From: Pseudomonas lurida
GTDB lineage: Bacteria > Pseudomonadota > Gammaproteobacteria > Pseudomonadales > Pseudomonadaceae
Reading direction: 5' to 3'
Assembly: GCF_002563895.1 (NCBI RefSeq)
Contig: NZ_PDJB01000001.1
Coordinates: 4,199,501-4,263,500 of the forward strand
Length of the DNA: 64,000 bases
Shown in pieces: positions 15,678 to 33,519 of this stretch (positions are counted from its first letter, which is position 1; every line of letters begins with the position of its first letter). Both the position numbers and the translations under genes were made by a program. A model generated the notes under the pieces. That model was not told the origin of the DNA. It saw only the letters and a program-made list of their open reading frames with translations, and ran no database searches.

Positions 15678-16136
15678 TCACTGCTCGCTGATGGATTTAA
15701 CATCAGCCTTGGCAGCACCACCAATCGCAATGCGCTTAGGCTTGGCTTCCTCCGGTACGACCCTGAGCAGATCGATGCTCAGCAAACCATTGGAAAGCTG
15801 TGCACCCTGCACTTCAATGTGGTCGACCAGGCGGAACGACAGACGGAACGCGCGCTGAGCGATACCCTGATGCAGGTAGGTGATGCCCTCGTTGTGTTCG
15901 CGCTTGCCGCCGGCGACGGTCAACACGCCTTTCTCCACCTGGATCTCCAGGTCATCCTCCACCAGGCCAGCAGCCGCGATCACGATCCGATAATGATCGT
16001 CACCGTGCTTTTCGACGTTGTGCGGTGGGTAGGTGGTACCGGCCTCGCTGCGAAGCGCCGATTCGAAAAGGTCGTTGAACCGGTCAAAGCCGACGGAGTG
16101 ACGGAACAGTGGGGCCAAGGAAAGAGTAGTAGCCAT
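15678..16136 (-). CDS. ibpA: Small heat-shock protein, Hsp20/IbpA type
   Basis: A 152-residue alpha-crystallin-domain chaperone that holds unfolding proteins for refolding by ClpB/DnaK. Start MATTLSLAPLFRHSVGFDR and the domain core with YPPHNVEKHGDDHYRIVIA match IbpA of Pseudomonas. The C-terminus has the conserved PKRIAI motif (the I-x-I anchor for oligomer assembly). ATG at 16136 is preceded by CAGGAG eight bases upstream; the upstream in-frame ATG at 16202 would lie inside the leader. A heat-shock promoter and a hairpin-containing leader precede it. Confidence 0.93.
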   Translation of the reverse strand: MATTLSLAPLFRHSVGFDRFNDLFESALRSEAGTTYPPHNVEKHGDDHYRIVIAAAGLVEDDLEIQVEKGVLTVAGGKREHNEGITYLHQGIAQRAFRLSFRLVDHIEVQGAQLSNGLLSIDLLRVVPEEAKPKRIAIGGAAKADVKSISEQ

Positions 16137-16232
16137 TGCAAAATCTCCTGAGGTTTCTCCAAGTGATTTGATACGCGACCCGTATTCGGCATCGCGTAAC
16201 ACCTAAGTAGGTTCAGGCGGAAAAATTTCAAG
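16137..16232 (-). promoter_or_regulatory. Heat-shock (sigma-32-like) promoter and structured 5' leader of hsp20, possible ROSE-type thermometer
   Basis: On the minus strand CTTGAAA (16232-16226) fits the sigma-32 -35 box and is followed after 14 bases by CCTACTT, a partial match to the -10 box. The presumed leader then forms TACGCGA/TCGCGTA (16198-16192 with 16178-16172) before the CAGGAG ribosome site. IbpA leaders in gammaproteobacteria are known to carry ROSE RNA thermometers. The position fits, but I do not see the full classic anti-Shine-Dalgarno pairing by eye. Confidence 0.5.
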
Positions 16233-26504: not shown

Positions 26505-27090
26505 TCAGCTATTCACCTGCTTCAGTCGTTGGAGAGCCTTTTGCGTTTTTGGCTCATTGACGGCCCGTTTGCAGGTAGGCCTCTTCCCCTTCGACTCCCT
26601 TCCAATAGACCCTTCCGTTTCGCCCTTTCTTTATGGCTTTTTGGAACGAGTAGATCGATGGAAAAACTGGTCTGCGAGGTAGCATGTTTAAAGCTTGTGT
26701 ATCGAGAATGATCAGATACGAGAACAACTGCTGACTAACCTCACTGTTTTCTTCATTGTGAGGACTTACCCGTAACTCCATACGCCTACAGCCCAGCGAA
26801 GACGGCCCCATAGATTCGCTGGGTACCCTCACACCTTCGGGTGCTCGCTAACATTTGAAGCAAGCGCTCGCTGAATATTCTTACAGTCACTGTCGCAATT
26901 GGCAGCTTGATCAAACCCTCCTGCTTTCTCATCCTCCCTACGTGCCCTGCTGACGTTTCAGCAACATGCTCAGGCAGTCCTGATCTAGAAGGCTGCAGTG
27001 CGTAAATCACGCACCGATCACTCGTCCGCCATCGCATTCACCACTGCGGTCACTCGTCAGAATCATTGACGATCGAATGCCTATCACACC
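26505..27090. other. Gene-free region upstream of the relaxase
   Basis: No supported coding sequence on either strand. It lies between the divergent relaxase and DUF3577 genes and must hold both promoters, and could hold oriT. I did not find an obvious large palindrome by eye. Confidence 0.5.
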
Positions 27091-27159
27091 ACCCAACGGG
27101 GAAATCACTTTCCCTGGGGATGAGTGACTTCTCGTTTTTGCCAAGAAACGGAGCAACTC
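27091..27159 (+). promoter_or_regulatory. Structured ICE leader, copy 1 (before the DUF3577 gene)
   Basis: Hairpin 1 is GGGAAA-TCAC-TTTCCC (27099-27114). After TGGGGATGAGTG, a CTCGTTT segment can pair with AAACGGAG (one bulge), which contains the Shine-Dalgarno just before ATG 27160. The same two-hairpin order occurs at 27671, 32271 and 32810. Confidence 0.6.
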
Positions 27160-27630
27160 ATGACGCAATTCTCCACCAACGAAACGAAATACTACGATCT
27201 GCACACTCGCGGTATCGGATACCTGTGTCGCGCACGAGAGGTCCAAGTGCGCAAGGCAGAACCGTTTATGGCAGTGACCGTAGCTGCACTTCACGGCGCC
27301 GCTGATGACGTTGAATACACCTACATCGACTGCCGAGTGACGGGCGCTGAAGCGGACACGCTGATTCGCAATTGCATGGAAGAGATCAACTCAGGGGATA
27401 AGGTCTTGGTGTGCTTCACAATCGGTGATATTTGGATTTCACCTTTCACGTACCAGAAGGGCGACAAAAAAGGTCAGCCTGGTGCGAGCCTCAAAGGACG
27501 ACTGCTCTATCTGTCCATGATCAGAATCAATGGCGAGATCGTATTCAGGGCTCCGCCCAAGGAATCAGCACAGGACGCACAGCCAAACTCCGTTATGGAG
27601 AGCCCAGTGCCCGCCGCAAGCGAGATCTGA
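27160..27630 (+). CDS. STY4534-type ICE protein (DUF3577)
   Basis: A 156-residue protein starting MTQFSTNETKYYDLHTRGIG. The core with YTYIDCRVTGAEADTLI and FTIGDIWISPFTYQKGDKKG matches my memory of DUF3577 / STY4534 proteins, which are carried by SPI-7-like ICEs and are called replication proteins in some annotations. The fold looks like a small OB-type domain. ATG 27160 is chosen for the GGAG ribosome site; a longer frame from 27124 has none. A structured leader precedes it. Confidence 0.8.
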   Translation: MTQFSTNETKYYDLHTRGIGYLCRAREVQVRKAEPFMAVTVAALHGAADDVEYTYIDCRVTGAEADTLIRNCMEEINSGDKVLVCFTIGDIWISPFTYQKGDKKGQPGASLKGRLLYLSMIRINGEIVFRAPPKESAQDAQPNSVMESPVPAASEI

Positions 27631-27648
27631 CCGTCAGCAAAACACCTA

Positions 27649-27667
27649 GGCGCCCCCTCAAGGCGCC
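27649..27667 (+). terminator. Hairpin after the DUF3577 gene
   Basis: GGCGCC and its repeat GGCGCC flank CCCTCAA, a short strong stem without a U tract. It separates the DUF3577 gene from the next leader. Confidence 0.45.
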
Positions 27668-27670
27668 CTC

Positions 27671-27741
27671 ACCCACCCTCGAGGGACAACGACTCCCTTG
27701 GGGACCGCGTGTCTCTTGCAACCCATTCAGAGGTTTACGCG
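27671..27741 (+). promoter_or_regulatory. Structured ICE leader, copy 2 (before the RadC-like gene)
   Basis: Hairpin 1 is AGGGA/TCCCT (27682-27698). It is followed by TTGGGGACCGCGTGTCTCTTG, in which CTCTTG can pair with CAGAG of the Shine-Dalgarno (CAGAGG) with one bulge. The order of elements equals the other three leaders. Confidence 0.55.
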
Positions 27742-28236
27742 ATGAGTCACACCAACGACTTAGGCACTGCGGCCCTACCCACGATCGTCTGCCGTGAGGA
27801 CGAAGATCACTTGATTCAGACGGCCTTACAGATCCTCGACCGTCGGCTCTTTACCCGAGGACCAAAGCTTCAGGATCCCCATGCGGTGCGCAACTACCTA
27901 AAGCTGCAACTCGCTGCGATGGATCACGAAGTCTTTGCGGTGATCTATCTGGACAGCGTGCATAGACCCATTAAATTCGAGGTGCTTTTTCATGGGAGTA
28001 TCAGCAACGCGGTCATCCACCCAAGGCAGGTTATCAAGCGTGCTTTAGCGCATAACGCCGCCGCGATCATCATCGCCCACAACCATCCTTCGGGATGTCG
28101 CAAACCAAGCCTGGCAGATCAACGACTCACTGCCTGCCTCAAGGAGTCGCTGGAACTCGTGGAAGTCAGGGTGCTGGATCACTTCATCATTGCTGAAGGC
28201 TCCCCGGTCTCACTGGCTGAGTATGGCTGGCTATAG
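27742..28236 (+). CDS. RadC-like JAB-domain protein
   Basis: A 164-residue JAMM/MPN+ fold protein. It has Glu63 in [11 protein letters not shown] and the metal motif HNHPSG (residues 113-118) followed by the Asp of LADQ, giving the E ... HxH ... S ... D metal set of JAB proteases. RadC-like genes are common on ICEs and genomic islands; their role, once thought to be DNA repair, is unsettled. I take ATG 27742, preceded by AGAGG. It is preceded by a structured leader and followed by a GC hairpin. Confidence 0.9.
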
Positions 28237-28248
28237 CCATCGACCAAA

Positions 28249-28265
28249 GCGCCCTACCCGGGCGC
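28249..28265 (+). terminator. Hairpin after the RadC-like gene
   Basis: GCGCCC / GGGCGC with a five-base loop, 13 bases beyond the stop codon. The U tract is poor (CCGTTGTT). Confidence 0.5.
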
Positions 28266-28366
28266 CCGTTGTTCCTCACACAGACACAACGTTGCCGACC
28301 TCACTCAGGAATTCTCCCGTTATCGATGGGCTCAGCTTTAAGCGGGCTCAACATTCAGGATCAAGG

Positions 28367-29104
28367 ATGAATGAGCTGGCTCTTTTCTCAGGTGTTGGTG
28401 GAGGAATACTCGGAGGCCAACTCATGGGATGGCGCACCGTCTGTGCTGTTGAGTGTGATGCCTACGCCGCACAAGTTCTCGTGCAACGACAAAACGATAG
28501 AGCCCTGCCGGCTTTCCCGATTTGGTCTGACGTGTGCAGTTTTGACGGTAGATCGTGGCGAGGCATTGTTGACGTGGTATCTGGCGGGTTTCCGTGCCAG
28601 GACATCTCCATTCAAGGCAGAGGCGTCGGCAGTGAGGGTGCTCGATCAGGCCTTTGGAAAGAAATGGCAAGAATCGTCGATGAGGTTCGACCGACTTTTG
28701 TGTGGCTGGAAAACTCCCCAATGCTCGTTACACGAGGCCTTGCCCTGGTCCTCGGTGACCTTACCCAAATGGGGTATGACGCTCACTGGTGTCGTGTATC
28801 AGCGAGTGAATGCGGTGCGCCCCATAAGCGTGACAGGATCTGGTTATTGGCCTACCCCAACAGCGAGCATGGCCAAGGGTTCATCACCCAAGTCGCTGAA
28901 GCGAAAGTGTGGCAGGGACCGAACGAGAGACAGACTGGACCATGCGGTGATGGCGTCAGACAGTGGCCAGTTGAACCCGGAGTGGGTCGAGTGGTTGATG
29001 GGCTGGCCCAGCGGGTGGACCGGATTAAAGCCCTTGGAAATGGGCAGGTACCAAGAGTGGTGGCAAGCGCATTCAGTATCTTGAAGAGCGAGGCAAAAGC
29101 CTGA
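28367..29104 (+). CDS. C5 cytosine DNA methyltransferase
   Basis: A 245-residue methyltransferase. It has motif I LALFSGVGGGILG (residues 4-16), motif IV with catalytic Cys77 in GGFPCQDIS, motif VI ENSPML (115-120), motif VIII HKRDRIW (153-159), and the C-terminal RIKALGNGQVP of motifs IX-X. The target recognition region is short, as in phage and ICE enzymes that may protect the element from restriction. No partner restriction gene is adjacent. Nearly the whole gene is also open in a second frame (28371-29084) with conserved-looking sequence. Confidence 0.88.
   Translation: MNELALFSGVGGGILGGQLMGWRTVCAVECDAYAAQVLVQRQNDRALPAFPIWSDVCSFDGRSWRGIVDVVSGGFPCQDISIQGRGVGSEGARSGLWKEMARIVDEVRPTFVWLENSPMLVTRGLALVLGDLTQMGYDAHWCRVSASECGAPHKRDRIWLLAYPNSEHGQGFITQVAEAKVWQGPNERQTGPCGDGVRQWPVEPGVGRVVDGLAQRVDRIKALGNGQVPRVVASAFSILKSEAKA
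28371..29084 (+). CDS. Overlapping alternative-frame protein within the methyltransferase gene
   Basis: A 237-residue frame starting four bases after the methyltransferase start and running in a different frame over almost its entire length. Its C-terminal part has GSGYWPTPTAS, LDHAVMAS and LNPEWVEWLMGWPSGWT. I recognise this set from phage and ICE proteins that occur beside or within C5 methyltransferase genes. A random frame would not carry such a motif series. The frame has no independent Shine-Dalgarno, so translation may start by re-initiation. Function unknown. Confidence 0.5.
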   Translation: MSWLFSQVLVEEYSEANSWDGAPSVLLSVMPTPHKFSCNDKTIEPCRLSRFGLTCAVLTVDRGEALLTWYLAGFRARTSPFKAEASAVRVLDQAFGKKWQESSMRFDRLLCGWKTPQCSLHEALPWSSVTLPKWGMTLTGVVYQRVNAVRPISVTGSGYWPTPTASMAKGSSPKSLKRKCGRDRTRDRLDHAVMASDSGQLNPEWVEWLMGWPSGWTGLKPLEMGRYQEWWQAHSVS

Positions 29105-29545
29105 GGGTCACTGCCTAGACGCCGAGTTAACGTGCACTGAACCTTGCGTTCGGTAAGAAACCTGAACACTTTTTCAGTGGGTGCTGATTCAGCCTTTCGG
29201 CAGAAAGCTCTGCATATGCGTTGTCTGCCAGTACGGATCGTCTTCCACATCCACCGTCTCAAACCCGTGCTTTTGCCAGAAACTAATCGCACTTGGGAGA
29301 AAGGGATGGGTATGCAGGTACGGCACGTCAATGCCACCGGCGAAGGCTAGTGTCCTCAGATACCCATACAGCTTCGCGGCGAGTCCTGAGCTTCGTTGAT
29401 CTGGACTCACGAACAAGCGCACCACTTCGACGACCTTGAGGCCCGATTAGTCGAGTTGAGGAAAACGGTAATCCTAAGGTAGGTAACCAATGGTCGCGAC
29501 AATCTCGTTGCCCCTGCGAGCTACGAGAAATTGCCCCTTTCCTAG

Positions 29546-30464
29546 GTTCTGTACGAAAACTCACGAAACACCGTTTTCTGTAAAATTCATTGCCATTACA
29601 GCCAGGAGGCCAAGATGGCAAAGCGATATGAACTCCCTGACACCGCCTGGGACCTGATTGCCGATATCTTTACTCGAACCCGACGCACCGGGCGCCCTCG
29701 AGTCGATGATCGCCTGATGCTCAACGGCGTGCTTTGGTTGCTCTGCTCGGGAGCAGCCTGGCGAGATATGCCAGAGCGCTTTGGCCCTTGGTCAACGGTG
29801 TATCAACGGTTTCGCGACTGGCGTAATTGTGGCGCTTTCGATCAAATGCTCCAGCGCCTTCATACCCGGTTGAACGAGCAGGGCTTGATTGATCTGGAAG
29901 CCTGGATGATCGACTCCAGTGCCGTTCGTGCAACCCGAGCCTCATCAGGCGCCGGAAAAAAAGGGGGCCTGAAGAACTGCAAGATCACGCGCTCCGACGC
30001 AGTCGGGGCGGCCTGACAACCAAAATCCACATGCTATGCGACGCCAATGGCGTGCCGCTGCGTTTCCTGCTGTCAGGCGGACAAGCCAGCAATATTGCCT
30101 ATGCCCAACCGTTACTGGATGAGGCTTACATCCCAAGCTTGCGCGGCCGTCCTCGCAAACGCTGCCGATGGCTGTTGGCCGACAAAGGATACGATGCTGA
30201 AGCCCTGCGCCGGTACTGTGATCGTTATCGAATGCAACCGGTAATCCCGTTGCGCAGCATGAAGCGCAAACCCAAGCCGGGTTTACCCAGACTGTTTGAT
30301 CGCCCCAAATACCGGCAGCGCAACATCATCGAACGCATGTTCGGCTGGCTGAAGGAGAACCGCCGCATCGTGACGCGTTTTGACAAGCTCGCAACAAGTT
30401 TTGCAGCGATGGTCTCATTGGCCTGTGCGATGCGGTGCTTACGACAATACTTTTCGTACAGAGC
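29546..30464 (+). mobile_element. IS5-family insertion sequence (IS427-like), 919 bp
   Basis: The ends GTTCTGTACGAAAA and TTTTCGTACAGAGC are inverted repeats with one mismatch. CTAG occurs directly at both junctions (29542-29545 and 30465-30468), giving a four-base target duplication. It carries one transposase split by a -1 frameshift site. The IS interrupts the GNAT gene. Confidence 0.92.
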
Positions 30465-30468
30465 CTAG
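29615..30468 (+). CDS. IS5-family transposase, expressed by -1 frameshifting
   Basis: The first frame (29615-30016, 133 residues) carries the N-domain and the first catalytic Asp in MIDSSAVRA. The second frame, -1 relative to the first and ending at 30468, carries LADKGYD with the second Asp and the RNIIERMFGWLKENRR box with the catalytic Glu. They join at a seven-A run followed by five G (29956-29967), a classic slippery site; the fused product reads GKKRGPEELQDHALRR across the shift. The TAG stop lies inside the target-site CTAG, outside the IS proper. Confidence 0.88.
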
Positions 30469-30771
30469 AACTAGATACGCCGCCTTGAATCCCGCGAGAT
30501 TAGGTGGCGTTGCTGTTTGGCTCAGCGTTGGAAAAATCTGCGCCCTGGCCCCCATAACATTCTCGATCACCTCATCAACTTCCGTGGACTGAACGGGCCA
30601 ATAACGATGTCGATTTGATTTTTTGGCATGGGTGAGACTGTCTCGTTGGCTATGTGTTGGCAGAAAATACACGATTTAGGTGAAATTCAACCTACTGGAT
30701 ACAGATCCGAGATTCTGTAATAGACATTTCAAAAAAGAGGCTAATCCTCTCCCCTGGAATTCAAAACAACA

Positions 30772-30792
30772 AAGGGCCCATCAAGGGCCCTT
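30772..30792 (-). terminator. Terminator of the MvaT-like gene
   Basis: AAGGGCCC / GGGCCCTT stem with a five-base loop, followed on the minus strand by TTGTTGTTTT. It lies 20 bases after the stop. Confidence 0.8.
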
Positions 30793-30812
30793 ATGTTGCC
30801 AAACCATTGATC

Positions 30813-31178
30813 TCACTTCGACAGCCAGGACTCAACGGTGTCTGAACCGTGCTCGGATTTCCATACCTTCAAGGTCTTGTGGTTGCCGCCCTTGGTCTCC
30901 ACCACTTCGCCCGTGTGAGGGTTCTTGTACATCTTCAGCTGACGTGCTTTACGGGTAGCCGTTACCGGCTTGGCTACTGCTACACGGCGACCAGCTTGAG
31001 GGTCAAGGATATTGATTACGTCTTTCAAGCTAAAACTGTACTCCCCCAACAGAGCGCGGAGTTTTTTCTCGAATTCGATTTCCTTTTTCAGACCAGAATC
31101 GCTTTTCATGGACTCAAGCTCTGCGAGCTGAGCCGCCAGTTGTTGCTCGAGCTTACGGTATTCCACTAGACGAGACAT
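30813..31178 (-). CDS. MvaT/MvaU-family H-NS-like nucleoid protein
   Basis: A 121-residue protein with an N-terminal coiled-coil dimerisation region (MSRLVEYRKLEQQLAAQLAE onward) and a C-terminal AT-hook-like DNA-binding domain (KMYKNPHTGEVVETKGGNHKTLKVWK). This is the xenogeneic silencer of Pseudomonas. ATG 31178 follows AAGGAAA; the longer form from 31205 is not used. Its position inside the island suggests an element-borne copy, like Pmr on plasmid pCAR1, that masks the AT-rich cargo and limits fitness cost. Confidence 0.88.
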   Translation of the reverse strand: MSRLVEYRKLEQQLAAQLAELESMKSDSGLKKEIEFEKKLRALLGEYSFSLKDVINILDPQAGRRVAVAKPVTATRKARQLKMYKNPHTGEVVETKGGNHKTLKVWKSEHGSDTVESWLSK

Positions 31179-31395
31179 TGAAGATTTCCTTGATATTGAA
31201 GCCAATCATGGTTGGCATGGTTAGTATGCTAAGGCAATAATGCAGATCAGTCACGGAAAAAACCTATTCTAACGTGCTGGGTTTACTAGCCTCACATGAA
31301 TACTATAAATCAGCTTACGCTAGACATTTCATACCAAGTGAAATTTCAGATTTCTTAACGAGAATTGGTCCTCATTTACTTTTAGGGATGATTTC

Positions 31396-31890
31396 ATGTC
31401 AGCAGACCTTGAACTTCCAGAAAACGCCGAACTACTACTGAAAAAATGGTACACACGCTGCAGCACCGTTGCGGTCGGACATTACAAAACTGCTGATTTC
31501 TACTCGAAAGCGAACATGAGACTAACAGTCACAGCAGCAGTACTATCGACCATAATCGGTACGACCGTGTTCGCTACGCTAGAGGAGCAATCAGGGTTTT
31601 TCTTGAAAATTTGCCTAGGCTTTTTAAGCTTGGCAGCGGCGGTGCTAGCCGCTTTGTCGGTAACAATGGGCTATCAGAATAAGGGGGAGAAGCATAGAAC
31701 TGCCGGCTCAAAGTACAACTCGGCGGGCAGAGAGCTTGAGCAACTCGGCACGAACACTTCAGTGACACAAGAATTACTGGACAAAATACGGACTAGGCTT
31801 GATGCAATAGCTGAAGAGTCTCCCCACCTACCTCGCTGGGTCCATAATGAAATAGCAGACCCTAGTCAGCTATCAAAATGGAATAACTGA
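31396..31890 (+). CDS. SLATT-domain two-helix membrane protein
   Basis: A 164-residue protein. The N-terminal helix (LLKKWYTRCSTVAVGHYKTADFY) is followed by two membrane segments (about residues 42-62 and 72-92) and a cytoplasmic coiled region. This matches the SLATT superfamily (SMODS and SLOG-associating two-transmembrane effector). SLATT proteins are proposed pore-forming effectors in nucleotide-second-messenger defence. No SMODS nucleotidyltransferase or SLOG gene is adjacent, so this copy is an orphan or is controlled in another way. The surrounding DNA is AT-rich. Confidence 0.7.
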   Translation: MSADLELPENAELLLKKWYTRCSTVAVGHYKTADFYSKANMRLTVTAAVLSTIIGTTVFATLEEQSGFFLKICLGFLSLAAAVLAALSVTMGYQNKGEKHRTAGSKYNSAGRELEQLGTNTSVTQELLDKIRTRLDAIAEESPHLPRWVHNEIADPSQLSKWNN

Positions 31891-32270
31891 AGTGGAGCTA
31901 CGCTCCTCCTCTGTATTTTATATTCATCTGGATACAATCAGTGCTCAGGTTTTACACTCAGATAAGGCGGCTTCCCAGACTTTAGGTTTGTGAGCGATCA
32001 ACGCGGTTCAGCAATGACAAAATCCTGCGGCCTCTCCTTTCCTCAATTCGTGTGAAGCAGTCAGCAGAGCCTACAAAAATGCAGGAAATGTCTGACTGGA
32101 TCATCGCAACGTTTAAGCTGATTATTTGATCTGGTTAGCTGTCGTCGACAGCACCTGCCCAGGTGACCATGATCCAGAAGGCCACGAATGCGCTTTACCG
32201 CATTGATCAGTTAAAGCTCACAACGCATTCGGAAGCGTGGGCATCGTCGATATGCTCGCCGACGGAATGC
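31891..32270. other. Intergenic region without a supported gene
   Basis: No convincing reading frame on either strand; a 60-codon frame at 32163 overlaps the leader of the next gene and has no recognisable features. Confidence 0.55.
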
Positions 32271-32341
32271 ATCCACCCCACAGTGACGGGAGCTTACCGT
32301 CAGGTGGGACTCTGCGTCGCTTGCCAACTGCAGGAGACACG
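32271..32341 (+). promoter_or_regulatory. Structured ICE leader, copy 3
   Basis: Hairpin 1 is TGACGG / CCGTCA (32284-32302). It is followed by GGTGGGACTCTGCGTCGCTTG, where CTCTGC can pair with GCAGGAG, the Shine-Dalgarno before ATG 32342, with a single bulged G. Confidence 0.6.
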
Positions 32342-32716
32342 ATGAAACTATCGCTAGCCCTTTATGACGCACTGACTTCTATCAGTGTGCCTAATAACAA
32401 AGCTAAAGCTGTTGTAGAGGCTTGGGAGGATGACGTGAAACATTTCGCATCAAAATCTGACTTAGAGCGGACCGAATCGCATCTTGAGGGCTCAATCTCA
32501 GGACTTCGTACCGATCTCACGGCACTTATAAAAGAGCAAGGTGCAGATCTACGTACATTGATCGAACGGCAAGCAAGCCAATTCCACGGTGCCGTTTCAA
32601 AGCTTGAGTCAAACATCACCGTACTTCGCTGGCAGTTTTGGCTCTTGGTAATTTGCTTCGGCTTCCCCATCCTAAAAAATCTTTATGAGGTTTACGGAAA
32701 AGTCATTGCGTCCTGA
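32342..32716 (+). CDS. Coiled-coil protein with C-terminal membrane anchor, unknown function
   Basis: A 124-residue protein. Residues 1-35 are a soluble head (SLALYDALTSISVPNNKAKA), residues 40-95 are a coiled coil with repeated D/E-L-x-x-x-E spacing, and residues 100-117 are a membrane helix (FWLLVICFGFPILKNLY). It resembles DUF1640/CCDC90-like tail-anchored proteins on phages and ICEs. Expression is probably controlled by the structured leader that covers its ribosome site. Confidence 0.7.
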   Translation: MKLSLALYDALTSISVPNNKAKAVVEAWEDDVKHFASKSDLERTESHLEGSISGLRTDLTALIKEQGADLRTLIERQASQFHGAVSKLESNITVLRWQFWLLVICFGFPILKNLYEVYGKVIAS

Positions 32717-32809
32717 TTTATAGCTTCACCCTCTCAGCCAGCAGTGCCCATTCTGCGGCCTACTAGCTACTAGACGTCGACATCGTCCACGTCTTGATTC
32801 ACACCTATT

Positions 32810-32880
32810 CAGTCCATACGGGGAACACTCCCCGTTTGGGCGACGTGTCTCTCCGTTTTGGGCGTTTTTCGGAGAGACAT
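32810..32880 (+). promoter_or_regulatory. Structured ICE leader, copy 4 (best-formed)
   Basis: Hairpin 1 is ACGGGGA-ACAC-TCCCCGT (32818-32835), seven perfect pairs. Hairpin 2 is CTCTCCG / CGGAGAG (32849-32855 with 32870-32876), seven perfect pairs that hide the Shine-Dalgarno GGAGAG. ATG follows at 32881. Confidence 0.7.
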
Positions 32881-33519
32881 ATGAAAATCGAAAACCTCAC
32901 CTCGCTTCAATCGAAGCTACTTCAGTCGCCAGTCATCTTCTCGCAAGACGCCTGGCACGAAGCGGTGTATCTAGAGCAACCAGCGAGCCTTGGTGACCTG
33001 GGAAACCGCTTAGGCGAAACCCTTCAAGCCGCGTATGCATGCCTTATGTACAGGACCGAAAAAGTAGATGCGGTAGAGCCGTTCTATGAGTTTGGCCTGT
33101 ATCGTTTTCTACCTAGCGGTGATCGTGTCGATCGACACTGGCTGGAGTTACGGCTGATCGTGGAGCACGCAGCGGATCAACCATCCACGCTACGTATTGT
33201 TCTTCGGCGTGAAAGCTCATCTTTAGAATTGAAGGTACCTGATGTCTTTTTTGACCCAGGCCTAATGATGATGACCAATGGCGTGCATTCGCTCATCGAA
33301 CAAGGACTGTTGGATGTGCATCCTCATCTCAACCGTCACCTTGTCGGTGATTGGGGGGATTTGTGCGACCAAGACAAGCTGAGCAATGAGCAGGCACTGC
33401 AGTACGGTGAACGCTTGTTCTCGTCCTACGAGATTGAAGCAGGGCAGGAAAGAAAGCTCTGGATCATCACAGAGAGGGACAGAAGCGTCACCACCTTGCT
33501 TCTACCTTCCGAGTACTGA
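32881..33519 (+). CDS. ICE/plasmid-associated protein of unknown function
   Basis: A 212-residue soluble protein, mixed alpha/beta, with no membrane segment. The C-terminal block (HLVGDWGDLCDQDKLSNEQA, then RLFSSYEI, KLWIITERDRSVTTLLLP) recurs in small plasmid- and ICE-borne proteins as I recall, so this looks like a C-terminal domain conserved among mobile elements; I know no function. It has the most perfect of the four structured leaders, so its translation is probably tightly controlled. Confidence 0.75.
   Translation: MKIENLTSLQSKLLQSPVIFSQDAWHEAVYLEQPASLGDLGNRLGETLQAAYACLMYRTEKVDAVEPFYEFGLYRFLPSGDRVDRHWLELRLIVEHAADQPSTLRIVLRRESSSLELKVPDVFFDPGLMMMTNGVHSLIEQGLLDVHPHLNRHLVGDWGDLCDQDKLSNEQALQYGERLFSSYEIEAGQERKLWIITERDRSVTTLLLPSEY

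What the first reader, a model, noticed from the sequence alone, without database searches (positions are those of the whole stretch)
27091..32880. Four ICE genes share a two-hairpin leader whose second hairpin covers the Shine-Dalgarno, with compensatory changes
Leaders at 27091, 27671, 32271 and 32810 have the same order: a GC stem (GGGAAA/TTTCCC, AGGGA/TCCCT, TGACGG/CCGTCA, ACGGGGA/TCCCCGT), then a GGG-containing strand ending in GTG-x-CTC-like sequence, then a CTC-containing segment able to pair with the Shine-Dalgarno. The second pairing changes on both sides: CTCTCCG/CGGAGAG, CTCTGC/GCAGGAG, CTCTTG/CAGAG, CTCGTTT/AAACGGAG. Both stems vary in sequence but keep pairing, which suggests a selected RNA structure controlling translation or antitermination of ICE maintenance genes. 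I know of no named RNA family that fits, but I could not search one.
Basis: partly seen in the sequence, partly recalled or inferred. Interest (0 to 1): 0.82.

Follow-up and report, generated by a model that had tools for sequence, protein, structure and literature searches.

The report
Ribosome-site-hiding RNA leaders of conjugative elements
Many genes of a large group of self-transferring DNA elements in bacteria begin with the same kind of folded RNA, which hides the ribosome's landing site and carries a look-alike of that site, so it probably works as an on/off switch for making the element's proteins.

Summary
Each leader has a GC hairpin (P1) and a second hairpin (P2) that pairs the Shine-Dalgarno strand up to the start codon. 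A nine-leader model gives 128 matches over 41 sources, before ORFs of about 20 sequence families. In 15 named plasmids/ICEs, including pKLC102 and ICEhin1056, 56 of 66 matches end exactly at an annotated start. P2 covaries.

New: the anti-SD strand (C) can pair with the SD strand (D) or with the P1 5' arm and loop (A). A:C fit is leader-specific: for annotation-chosen starts of 15 elements (145 for C:D, 136 for A:C) z is about -11, 0 of 20000 swaps as good; E. coli control zero. Best reading: an element-wide translational switch, closed at rest, trigger unknown, no experiment.

Two window leaders follow Rfam radC RNAs; in relatives 54 of 58 listed radC RNAs are followed by such a leader. Against: a column test on 49 orthologous leaders found nothing; computed refolding barriers are high; direct A-D similarity is modest.

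The parts
26931..27080 (+). radC RNA (RF01754) in front of leader 1
   Evidence: 80.7 bits, gathering 40
27090..27162 (+). Leader 1 of the DUF3577 gene, through its ATG (27160): CCC 27092-27094, P1 27097-27104/27109-27116, GGG 27117-27119, P2 outer stem 27120-27125/27156-27161 over the SD GGAG
   Evidence: fold -28.3 kcal/mol, z -3.2; in the seed of R1; R2 55.3 bits
27670..27744 (+). Leader 2 of the RadC-like gene, through its ATG (27742): P1 27677-27686/27694-27703, P2 27706-27716/27729-27733 and 27736-27741
   Evidence: fold, z -1.3, not beyond chance alone; R1 E 0.4
32121..32270 (+). radC RNA (RF01754) in front of leader 3
   Evidence: 66.1 bits, gathering 40
32271..32344 (+). Leader 3 of the weakly CCDC90-like gene, through its ATG (32342): P1 32277-32281 and 32284-32289/32297-32302 and 32304-32308, P2 32313-32324/32330-32341; nascent fold is A:C
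   Evidence: z -2.7, folds; not listed by R1 or R2; homologous-gene leaders in L012, L014, L015
32812..32883 (+). Leader 4, through the ATG (32881) of a gene without Pfam family: P1 32812-32816 and 32818-32824/32829-32835 and 32837-32841, P2 32845-32855/32870-32880; nascent fold is A:C
   Evidence: z -4.8, folds; R1 E 5.7e-7, not in the seed
27160..27627 (+). Gene under leader 1: DUF3577, annotated in plasmid relatives as STY4534 family ICE replication protein
   Evidence: Pfam PF12101 162.6 bits; annotation of hits
27742..28233 (+). Gene under leader 2: RadC-like JAB domain
   Evidence: Pfam PF04002 138 bits
32342..32713 (+). Gene under leader 3: CCDC90-like match below the Pfam cut-off
   Evidence: 22.3 bits, cut-off 33.5
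32881..33516 (+). Gene under leader 4: unknown; relatives in plasmids partly annotated as DUF6094 proteins
   Evidence: no Pfam family; tblastn hits cover at most part of it

Best explanation
These are cis-acting mRNA leaders that control translation of replication and maintenance genes of SPI-7/pKLC102-like conjugative elements. Four strands lie in order: A (P1 5' arm and loop), B (P1 3' arm), C (anti-SD strand) and D (SD to start codon). In the stable fold A pairs with B and C with D, so the SD is shut. A competes with D for C: if A pairs with C, D is free and the gene can be translated. The leader is thus a translational switch that rests closed and opens when A:B is prevented or undone. 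Shown here by sequence and computation: the strands, their recurrence before many genes in several host groups, leader-specific A:C and C:D fit, and their position at annotated start codons. Inferred: that translation is regulated, that A:C is the open state, and that the signal acts on P1 or on the radC RNA in front of some leaders. The trigger is unknown.
For: 128 model matches over 41 sources, 126 with ATG at the expected place; 119 ORFs in 23 sequence clusters, at least two of them chance. All 225 rows listed for 80 protein-selected loci lie on the strand of the DUF3577 gene. 56 of 66 matches in 15 named elements end exactly at an annotated start. Covariation on 66 leaders outside the model: score 0.292, shuffled 0.141, slid at most 0.085. 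Annotation-chosen starts: C:D z -11.3 (n 145), A:C z -11.1 (n 136), 0 of 20000 swaps; within-element swaps z -8.3 and -8.0, 0 of 5000; E. coli K-12 z 0.1 and 0.0 (n 24, 21). Disjoint pairs at identity 0.5-0.7: A:C native better 67, worse 18; C:D 61 and 20; A:D control 40 and 45. Cut before D, A:C exceeds A:B in 161 of 186 leaders, with a foreign C in 198 of 930; in the full leader opening the SD costs a median 7.7 kcal/mol.
Against: No experiment. The column covariation test on 49 orthologous leaders aligned by sequence found no pair under E 0.05, best 4.1. Close pairs (identity 0.7-0.9) show no significant native advantage: A:C 19 against 14, C:D 16 against 10. Direct A-D likeness is modest: shared substring z -3.0 at the 80% cap, -1.2 at 55%. 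Computed barriers are high: A:B to A:C median 16.6 kcal/mol (146 leaders), open to closed 15.0 (135 leaders), pseudoknots not modelled, so spontaneous switching in time is doubtful. In the window only leaders 3 and 4 show the nascent A:C fold.
Confidence: 0.6

Rival explanations
1. Pseudoknotted lock: the P1 loop pairs with the 5' part of C while A:B and the SD part of C:D stay formed. The loop pairing then shapes one closed structure or a protein site and is not an open state.
For: Most of the A:C signal is between the P1 loop and the first six bases of C (z 7.6, n 42); the stem part is weaker (z 3.8). Direct displacement of A:B has a high computed barrier.
Against: In several leaders A:C runs through stem and loop without a break, for example GGGGATAACAC/GTGTTATCCCC in ICEhin1056, and A:C is the best full-length fold of some (A:C exceeds A:B in 23 of 186). 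The same six bases of C also pair with D (z 7.4), so both cannot hold at once.
Confidence: 0.2
2. Kinetic fuse: each new transcript passes through A:C (SD open) before D is made and then refolds to A:B + C:D, so only fresh mRNA is translated, as in the MS2 maturation leader.
For: Cut before D, A:C exceeds A:B in 161 of 186 leaders, 48 of 60 at under 60% identity, against 198 of 930 with a foreign C; the closed fold is 8.8 kcal/mol (median) more stable at full length (135 leaders).
Against: P1 (A:B) is made first, and its displacement by C has a median computed barrier of 16.6 kcal/mol; under a crude rate about 1% of 146 leaders would do it within 5 s. Window leaders 1 and 2 do not show it.
Confidence: 0.1
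3. RNA thermometer or plain lock: P2 alone matters and melts with temperature or is opened by ribosomes; P1 only insulates it.
For: P2 alone explains SD cover; opening costs a median 7.7 kcal/mol at 37 C.
Against: Leader-specific A:C fit has no place in it. No thermometer family of Rfam matches the leaders; melting was not tested.
Confidence: 0.06
4. DNA-level element: the repeated sequence is a promoter or regulator site, and the RNA folds are by-products.
For: An ICEclc study reports a shared 27-bp motif in eight of nine bimodal promoters (PMC9286271, passages; its figure not seen). In P1, G.U and A.C cells are about equal, 41 and 38.
Against: 56 of 66 matches end exactly at an annotated start codon; all 225 listed rows lie on the coding strand; in P2 G.U exceeds A.C, 138 to 73.
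Confidence: 0.04

Closest known systems
radC RNA motif (Rfam RF01754; Weinberg et al. 2010)
   Same: Lies directly in front of leaders 1 and 3 and in front of leaders in relatives: 54 of 58 listed radC RNAs are followed by one. Same element type.
   Different: The Rfam model ends before P1, or overlaps it by about 30 nt in four cases; it does not contain the SD-pairing hairpin. Many leaders have no listed radC RNA. Some radC RNAs, such as L002 and L018, are not followed by a visible leader. The 2010 table gives radC a question mark as a switch (PMC2864571, one passage).
Translational expression platforms of riboswitches (general knowledge)
   Same: Mutually exclusive pairings decide whether an anti-SD strand covers the SD.
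   Different: No aptamer or ligand is known; the platform recurs before about 20 gene families of one element type, with the alternative strand inside a stable hairpin of its own.
MS2 maturation leader and type I toxin mRNAs (PMC6733600, passages)
   Same: Competing folds and transient structures govern SD access; [quoted passage not shown]
   Different: Here the fold is local and 5' of the start codon, the genes are replication, anti-restriction and unknown ICE genes, and the order of the strands differs.

Membership tests
radC RNA (RF01754) | match to the Rfam covariance model over the leader itself | tested here: not met
   the two window matches end at 27080 and 32270, before the leaders; leaders 2 and 4 have none up to E 1
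radC RNA (RF01754) | same transcript and position, 5' of ICE genes | tested here: met
   54 of 58 listed radC RNAs in fetched regions have a leader at E 0.2 within -33 to 132 nt; regions were chosen for radC hits
SD-sequestering translational switch | conserved pairing over the SD | tested here: met
   the sequence-only column test did not find it
SD-sequestering translational switch | conserved, mutually exclusive alternative pairing | tested here: met
   A:C by swaps and disjoint pairs; close pairs not significant
SD-sequestering translational switch | translation changes with a signal | not testable with these tools
   no expression data or bench work
riboswitch | ligand-binding aptamer | not testable with these tools
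   no ligand known; radC RNA in front of some leaders is only a candidate
transcription attenuator | GC stem followed by a T run in the leader | tested here: not met
   6 terminator-like sites in 26700-33000 against 6.6 expected, none on + in a leader
CsrA/Rsm target | GGA exposed in a hairpin loop | tested here: not met
   0 of 186 leaders have an unpaired GGA between P1 and the SD in the best fold, and the SD GGA is unpaired in 2
RNA thermometer | SD stem melts in the physiological range | not tested
   only a 37 C opening cost was computed

The most novel reading that the evidence does not exclude
A whole class of conjugative elements runs a post-transcriptional regulon: many of its genes each carry a copy of a bistable leader in which a hairpin holds an alternative partner for the anti-SD strand, and radC RNA, a family without known function since 2010, is the optional sensor domain of that switch.
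Probability: 0.4. Interest if true: 0.88.

Novelty: new variant of a known kind. Interest (0 to 1): 0.78.

Why it matters
In the ICE papers I saw, control is described at the level of promoters and bistable transcription (PMC9286271, PMC2892462; passages and one section). A leader shared by about 20 sequence families of genes of one element type, kept in hosts from Haemophilus and Vibrio to Burkholderia and Pseudomonas, points to a second, translational layer that could act on the replication and maintenance block as a whole. It also gives the orphan radC RNA a testable role, and it supplies an RNA family with many natural variants for studying competing folds.

Tried and rejected
Column covariation with a phylogenetic null on 49 orthologous leaders, MAFFT sequence alignment: nothing significant, best E 4.1. 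For that test the annotated starts of L174 and L181 were left out because their upstream sequence was of another kind, and 94 sequences were reduced to 49 at 93% identity.

RNAalifold on the nine-leader MAFFT alignment: ten pairs, none with changes on both sides; on the 49-leader alignment it gave no structure at all.

Genome-wide search with the broad model: 12 of 398 genomes at E 0.001, but only 12 candidates per genome were scored, so prevalence was not measured. In the window's own genome it gave 2 of the 4 leaders and one hit at E 9.

Dropped rows: before the swap test three false or unusable leaders and rows with short strands were taken out of 74 (71 left); two of 350 rows with short strands.

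A spontaneous kinetic fuse was weakened by computed barriers. CsrA-type sites and attenuation were tested and not met.

Literature: ten searches: radC RNA 0 papers, RF01754 2, DUF3577 5, STY4534 1, and combined ICE, ICEclc, pKLC102, riboswitch, SD and MS2/hok terms. In those listings, and in the passages I opened of seven fetched papers (PMC2864571, PMC9286271, PMC2892462, PMC3739013, PMC6733600, PMC2258188; PMC7366521 was seen in a listing only), nothing described this leader. Subscription papers and preprints are not held and supplements could not be read, so the motif of PMC9286271 could overlap the leader.
Full report
What was checked. Each has a GC hairpin P1, flanked in most by a CCC/GGG extension, and then P2, which covers the SD in all four best folds. 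Alone, three of four fold better than dinucleotide shuffles; leader 2 does not. Two of the four follow directly on radC RNAs: 26931-27080 (80.7 bits) and 32121-32270 (66.1 bits).

Relatives. RF01754 was searched in 199 genomes of the genus; 103 have a match at E 1e-4. Reading behind 34 of these hits showed the same kind of leader before a start codon in about two thirds; the others (L002, L018, L024-L026, L031, L033, L034) run into a different, conserved hairpin, and L004 is a sub-threshold match. Forty stretches were fetched, chosen because they hold radC matches. Model R1, seeded with nine leaders of which one is window leader 1, gave 128 matches at E up to 1 over 41 sources. Of the 128, 126 have ATG at the expected place and 119 have ATG with an open frame of 40 codons or more. 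The 119 proteins fall into 23 clusters, at least two of which stem from chance matches on the opposite strand, so I say about 20. Pfam names DUF3577, RadC JAB, ArdC anti-restriction, DUF5983, DUF3275, DUF3085 and a helicase; many have no family. The leader is therefore a module that recurs before unrelated genes of one element type.

Wider spread. A scan of genome contigs with a DUF3577 alignment kept the best 80 of 437 loci, chosen by protein only and mostly Pseudomonas. Model R2, built from the 128 R1 matches, gave 225 matches at E 0.05 there; all listed rows are on the strand of the DUF3577 gene. Of the 80 loci, 75 have one of the 150 best matches within 30 nt of the start of the protein match. 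L140 and L154 have a listed match 33 nt away, L164 and L170 a listed match below the best 150, and L171 has none at that cut. Fifteen stretches of named plasmids and ICEs were fetched: pKLC102, ICEhin1056, and plasmids of Burkholderia, Vibrio (two), Enterobacter, Shewanella, Aliivibrio, Comamonas, Paraburkholderia, Nitrogeniibacter, Serratia, Citrobacter, Erwinia and Stutzerimonas. R2 gives 66 matches at E 0.3, all on the + strand; 56 of 66 end exactly at one of 253 listed starts, two more lie 3 nt off, and every element has at least one. In 49 kb of E. coli K-12 it finds none up to E 10.

Structure. On those 66 leaders, none of which was used to build R2, 83.7% of cells form standard pairs against 73.0% shuffled, 14 of 17 pairs change on both sides (shuffled 9.7), 119 cells against 45, and the covariation score is 0.292 against 0.141 shuffled and at most 0.085 slid; 0 of 500 shuffles reach any of these. 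The alignment was fitted to the model and leans towards it, and the shuffles ignore descent. In P2 G.U cells outnumber A.C cells 138 to 73, which speaks for RNA of this strand; P1 shows no difference, 41 to 38.

Third pairing. The P1 5' arm and loop (A) can often pair with the anti-SD strand (C); in ICEhin1056 the leader before L173 11863 has GGGGATAACAC in A and GTGTTATCCCC in C. I tested whether A fits its own C better than the C of other leaders. With leaders found by R1, whose structure does not contain A:C, the real pairs beat all 20000 swaps at the 80, 70, 60 and 55% identity caps (n 64, 42, 23, 12); A:D and A:reversed C do not. At the 50% cap only 4 leaders remain and 828 of 20000 swaps do as well. 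The direct likeness of A to D, measured by shared substring, is modest: 55 of 20000 swaps reach it at the 80% cap and 3288 at 55%, so I call A a look-alike of D mainly through their common partner C. Most of the A:C signal is between the P1 loop and the first six bases of C (z 7.6), the same bases that pair with the start-proximal strand (z 7.4); the stem part is weaker, z 3.8 (n 42).

With genes chosen by annotation only the result is the same: 145 starts from the 15 elements for C:D and 136 with enough upstream sequence for A:C, z -11.3 and -11.1, 0 of 20000 swaps as good; with swaps kept within one element z -8.3 and -8.0, 0 of 5000. E. coli K-12 genes give zero, with 24 and 21 starts. Swaps ignore descent, so I also compared native and exchanged strands in disjoint pairs of leaders (186 under 90% identity, out of 348). 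At identity 0.5-0.7 A:C is better natively in 67 and worse in 18, at 0.4-0.6 82 and 8, at 0.6-0.8 38 and 20; C:D 61 and 20, 74 and 16, 41 and 15; the A:D control 40 and 45, 38 and 52, 35 and 21 (the last p 0.04). Among close pairs (0.7-0.9) neither helix shows a significant difference, 19 to 14 and 16 to 10.

A failed test. A column-pair test with a phylogenetic null, written in the style of R-scape, on 49 DUF3577-gene leaders aligned by MAFFT without structure gave no pair below E 0.05; the best had E 4.1. Orthologous leaders vary little in P2 and the divergent rows look shifted, so I think power was low.

Energetics. In the full leader C:D holds and opening the SD costs a median 7.7 kcal/mol; A:C exceeds A:B in 23 of 186. 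If the transcript is cut before D, A:C exceeds A:B in 161 of 186 and, at under 60% identity, in 48 of 60; with a C strand from another leader in 198 of 930. In the window this holds for leaders 3 and 4, not 1 and 2. Computed barriers are high: from A:B to A:C before D is made, median 16.6 kcal/mol (146 leaders), and from open to closed 15.0 (135 leaders), both without pseudoknots. So the leader seems poised: the stable state is closed, a conserved competing state is open, and something probably has to act on P1 to reach it.

radC RNA. Of 58 radC RNAs of the capped list that lie in the fetched regions, 54 are followed by a leader at E 0.2, four of these with an overlap of about 30 nt. Of 134 leaders, 54 have a listed radC RNA in front; searches show further radC RNAs there that the capped list lacks, so this is a lower bound, and since the regions were chosen for radC hits neither figure is a prevalence. 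I read radC RNA as an optional upstream domain of this leader. Weinberg et al. list radC with a question mark in the switch column (PMC2864571, one passage).

Mechanism and literature. The logic is that of translational expression platforms. In the MS2 maturation leader a transient structure allows translation before the final fold forms (PMC6733600, passages). In ICEhin1056 three leaders at E 0.3 and a fourth, weaker one precede the last genes of a 15-gene module reported as important for conjugal transfer (PMC3739013, start of abstract and passages). For ICEclc, eight of nine bimodal promoters share a 27-bp motif (PMC9286271, passages); whether it touches the leader could not be checked. In the ten searches I found no description of the leader.

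Verdict. A real, widespread cis-regulatory RNA family of SPI-7/pKLC102-like conjugative elements, most likely a translational switch. Structure and competing pairings are supported by sequence; regulation and its signal are inferred.

Noticed in passing
L002 1501-1636 (own genome C1:5399741-5399876), also L018, L024-L026, L031, L033, L034: A second class of radC RNA without the leader, followed about 120 nt on by a conserved hairpin CGCCCGTCTCTTTC..GAAAGAGACGGGCG; in L002 an integrase-like ORF (recalled resemblance) lies upstream.
   Followed up: partly
window 16131-16198 (-): ROSE_3 thermoregulator match, 62.8 bits, gathering 43.
   Followed up: no
window 28367-29104 (+): ORF that looks like a cytosine DNA methyltransferase (recalled resemblance) lies between leaders 2 and 3 on the same strand without an evident leader of this kind.
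   Followed up: no
window 29615-30468 (+): Transposase-like gene in two frames with an AAAAAAAGGGGG run between them, as in insertion sequences with programmed frameshifting (recalled resemblance).
   Followed up: no
L147 6282-6359 and 7304-7371: A contig labelled Streptomyces carries a Pseudomonas-like DUF3577 locus with two leaders, perhaps contamination of the assembly.
   Followed up: no
L048 3709-3766: Near-palindrome that matches the miRNA family mir-9256 below its gathering score on both strands, probably by shape alone.
   Followed up: no
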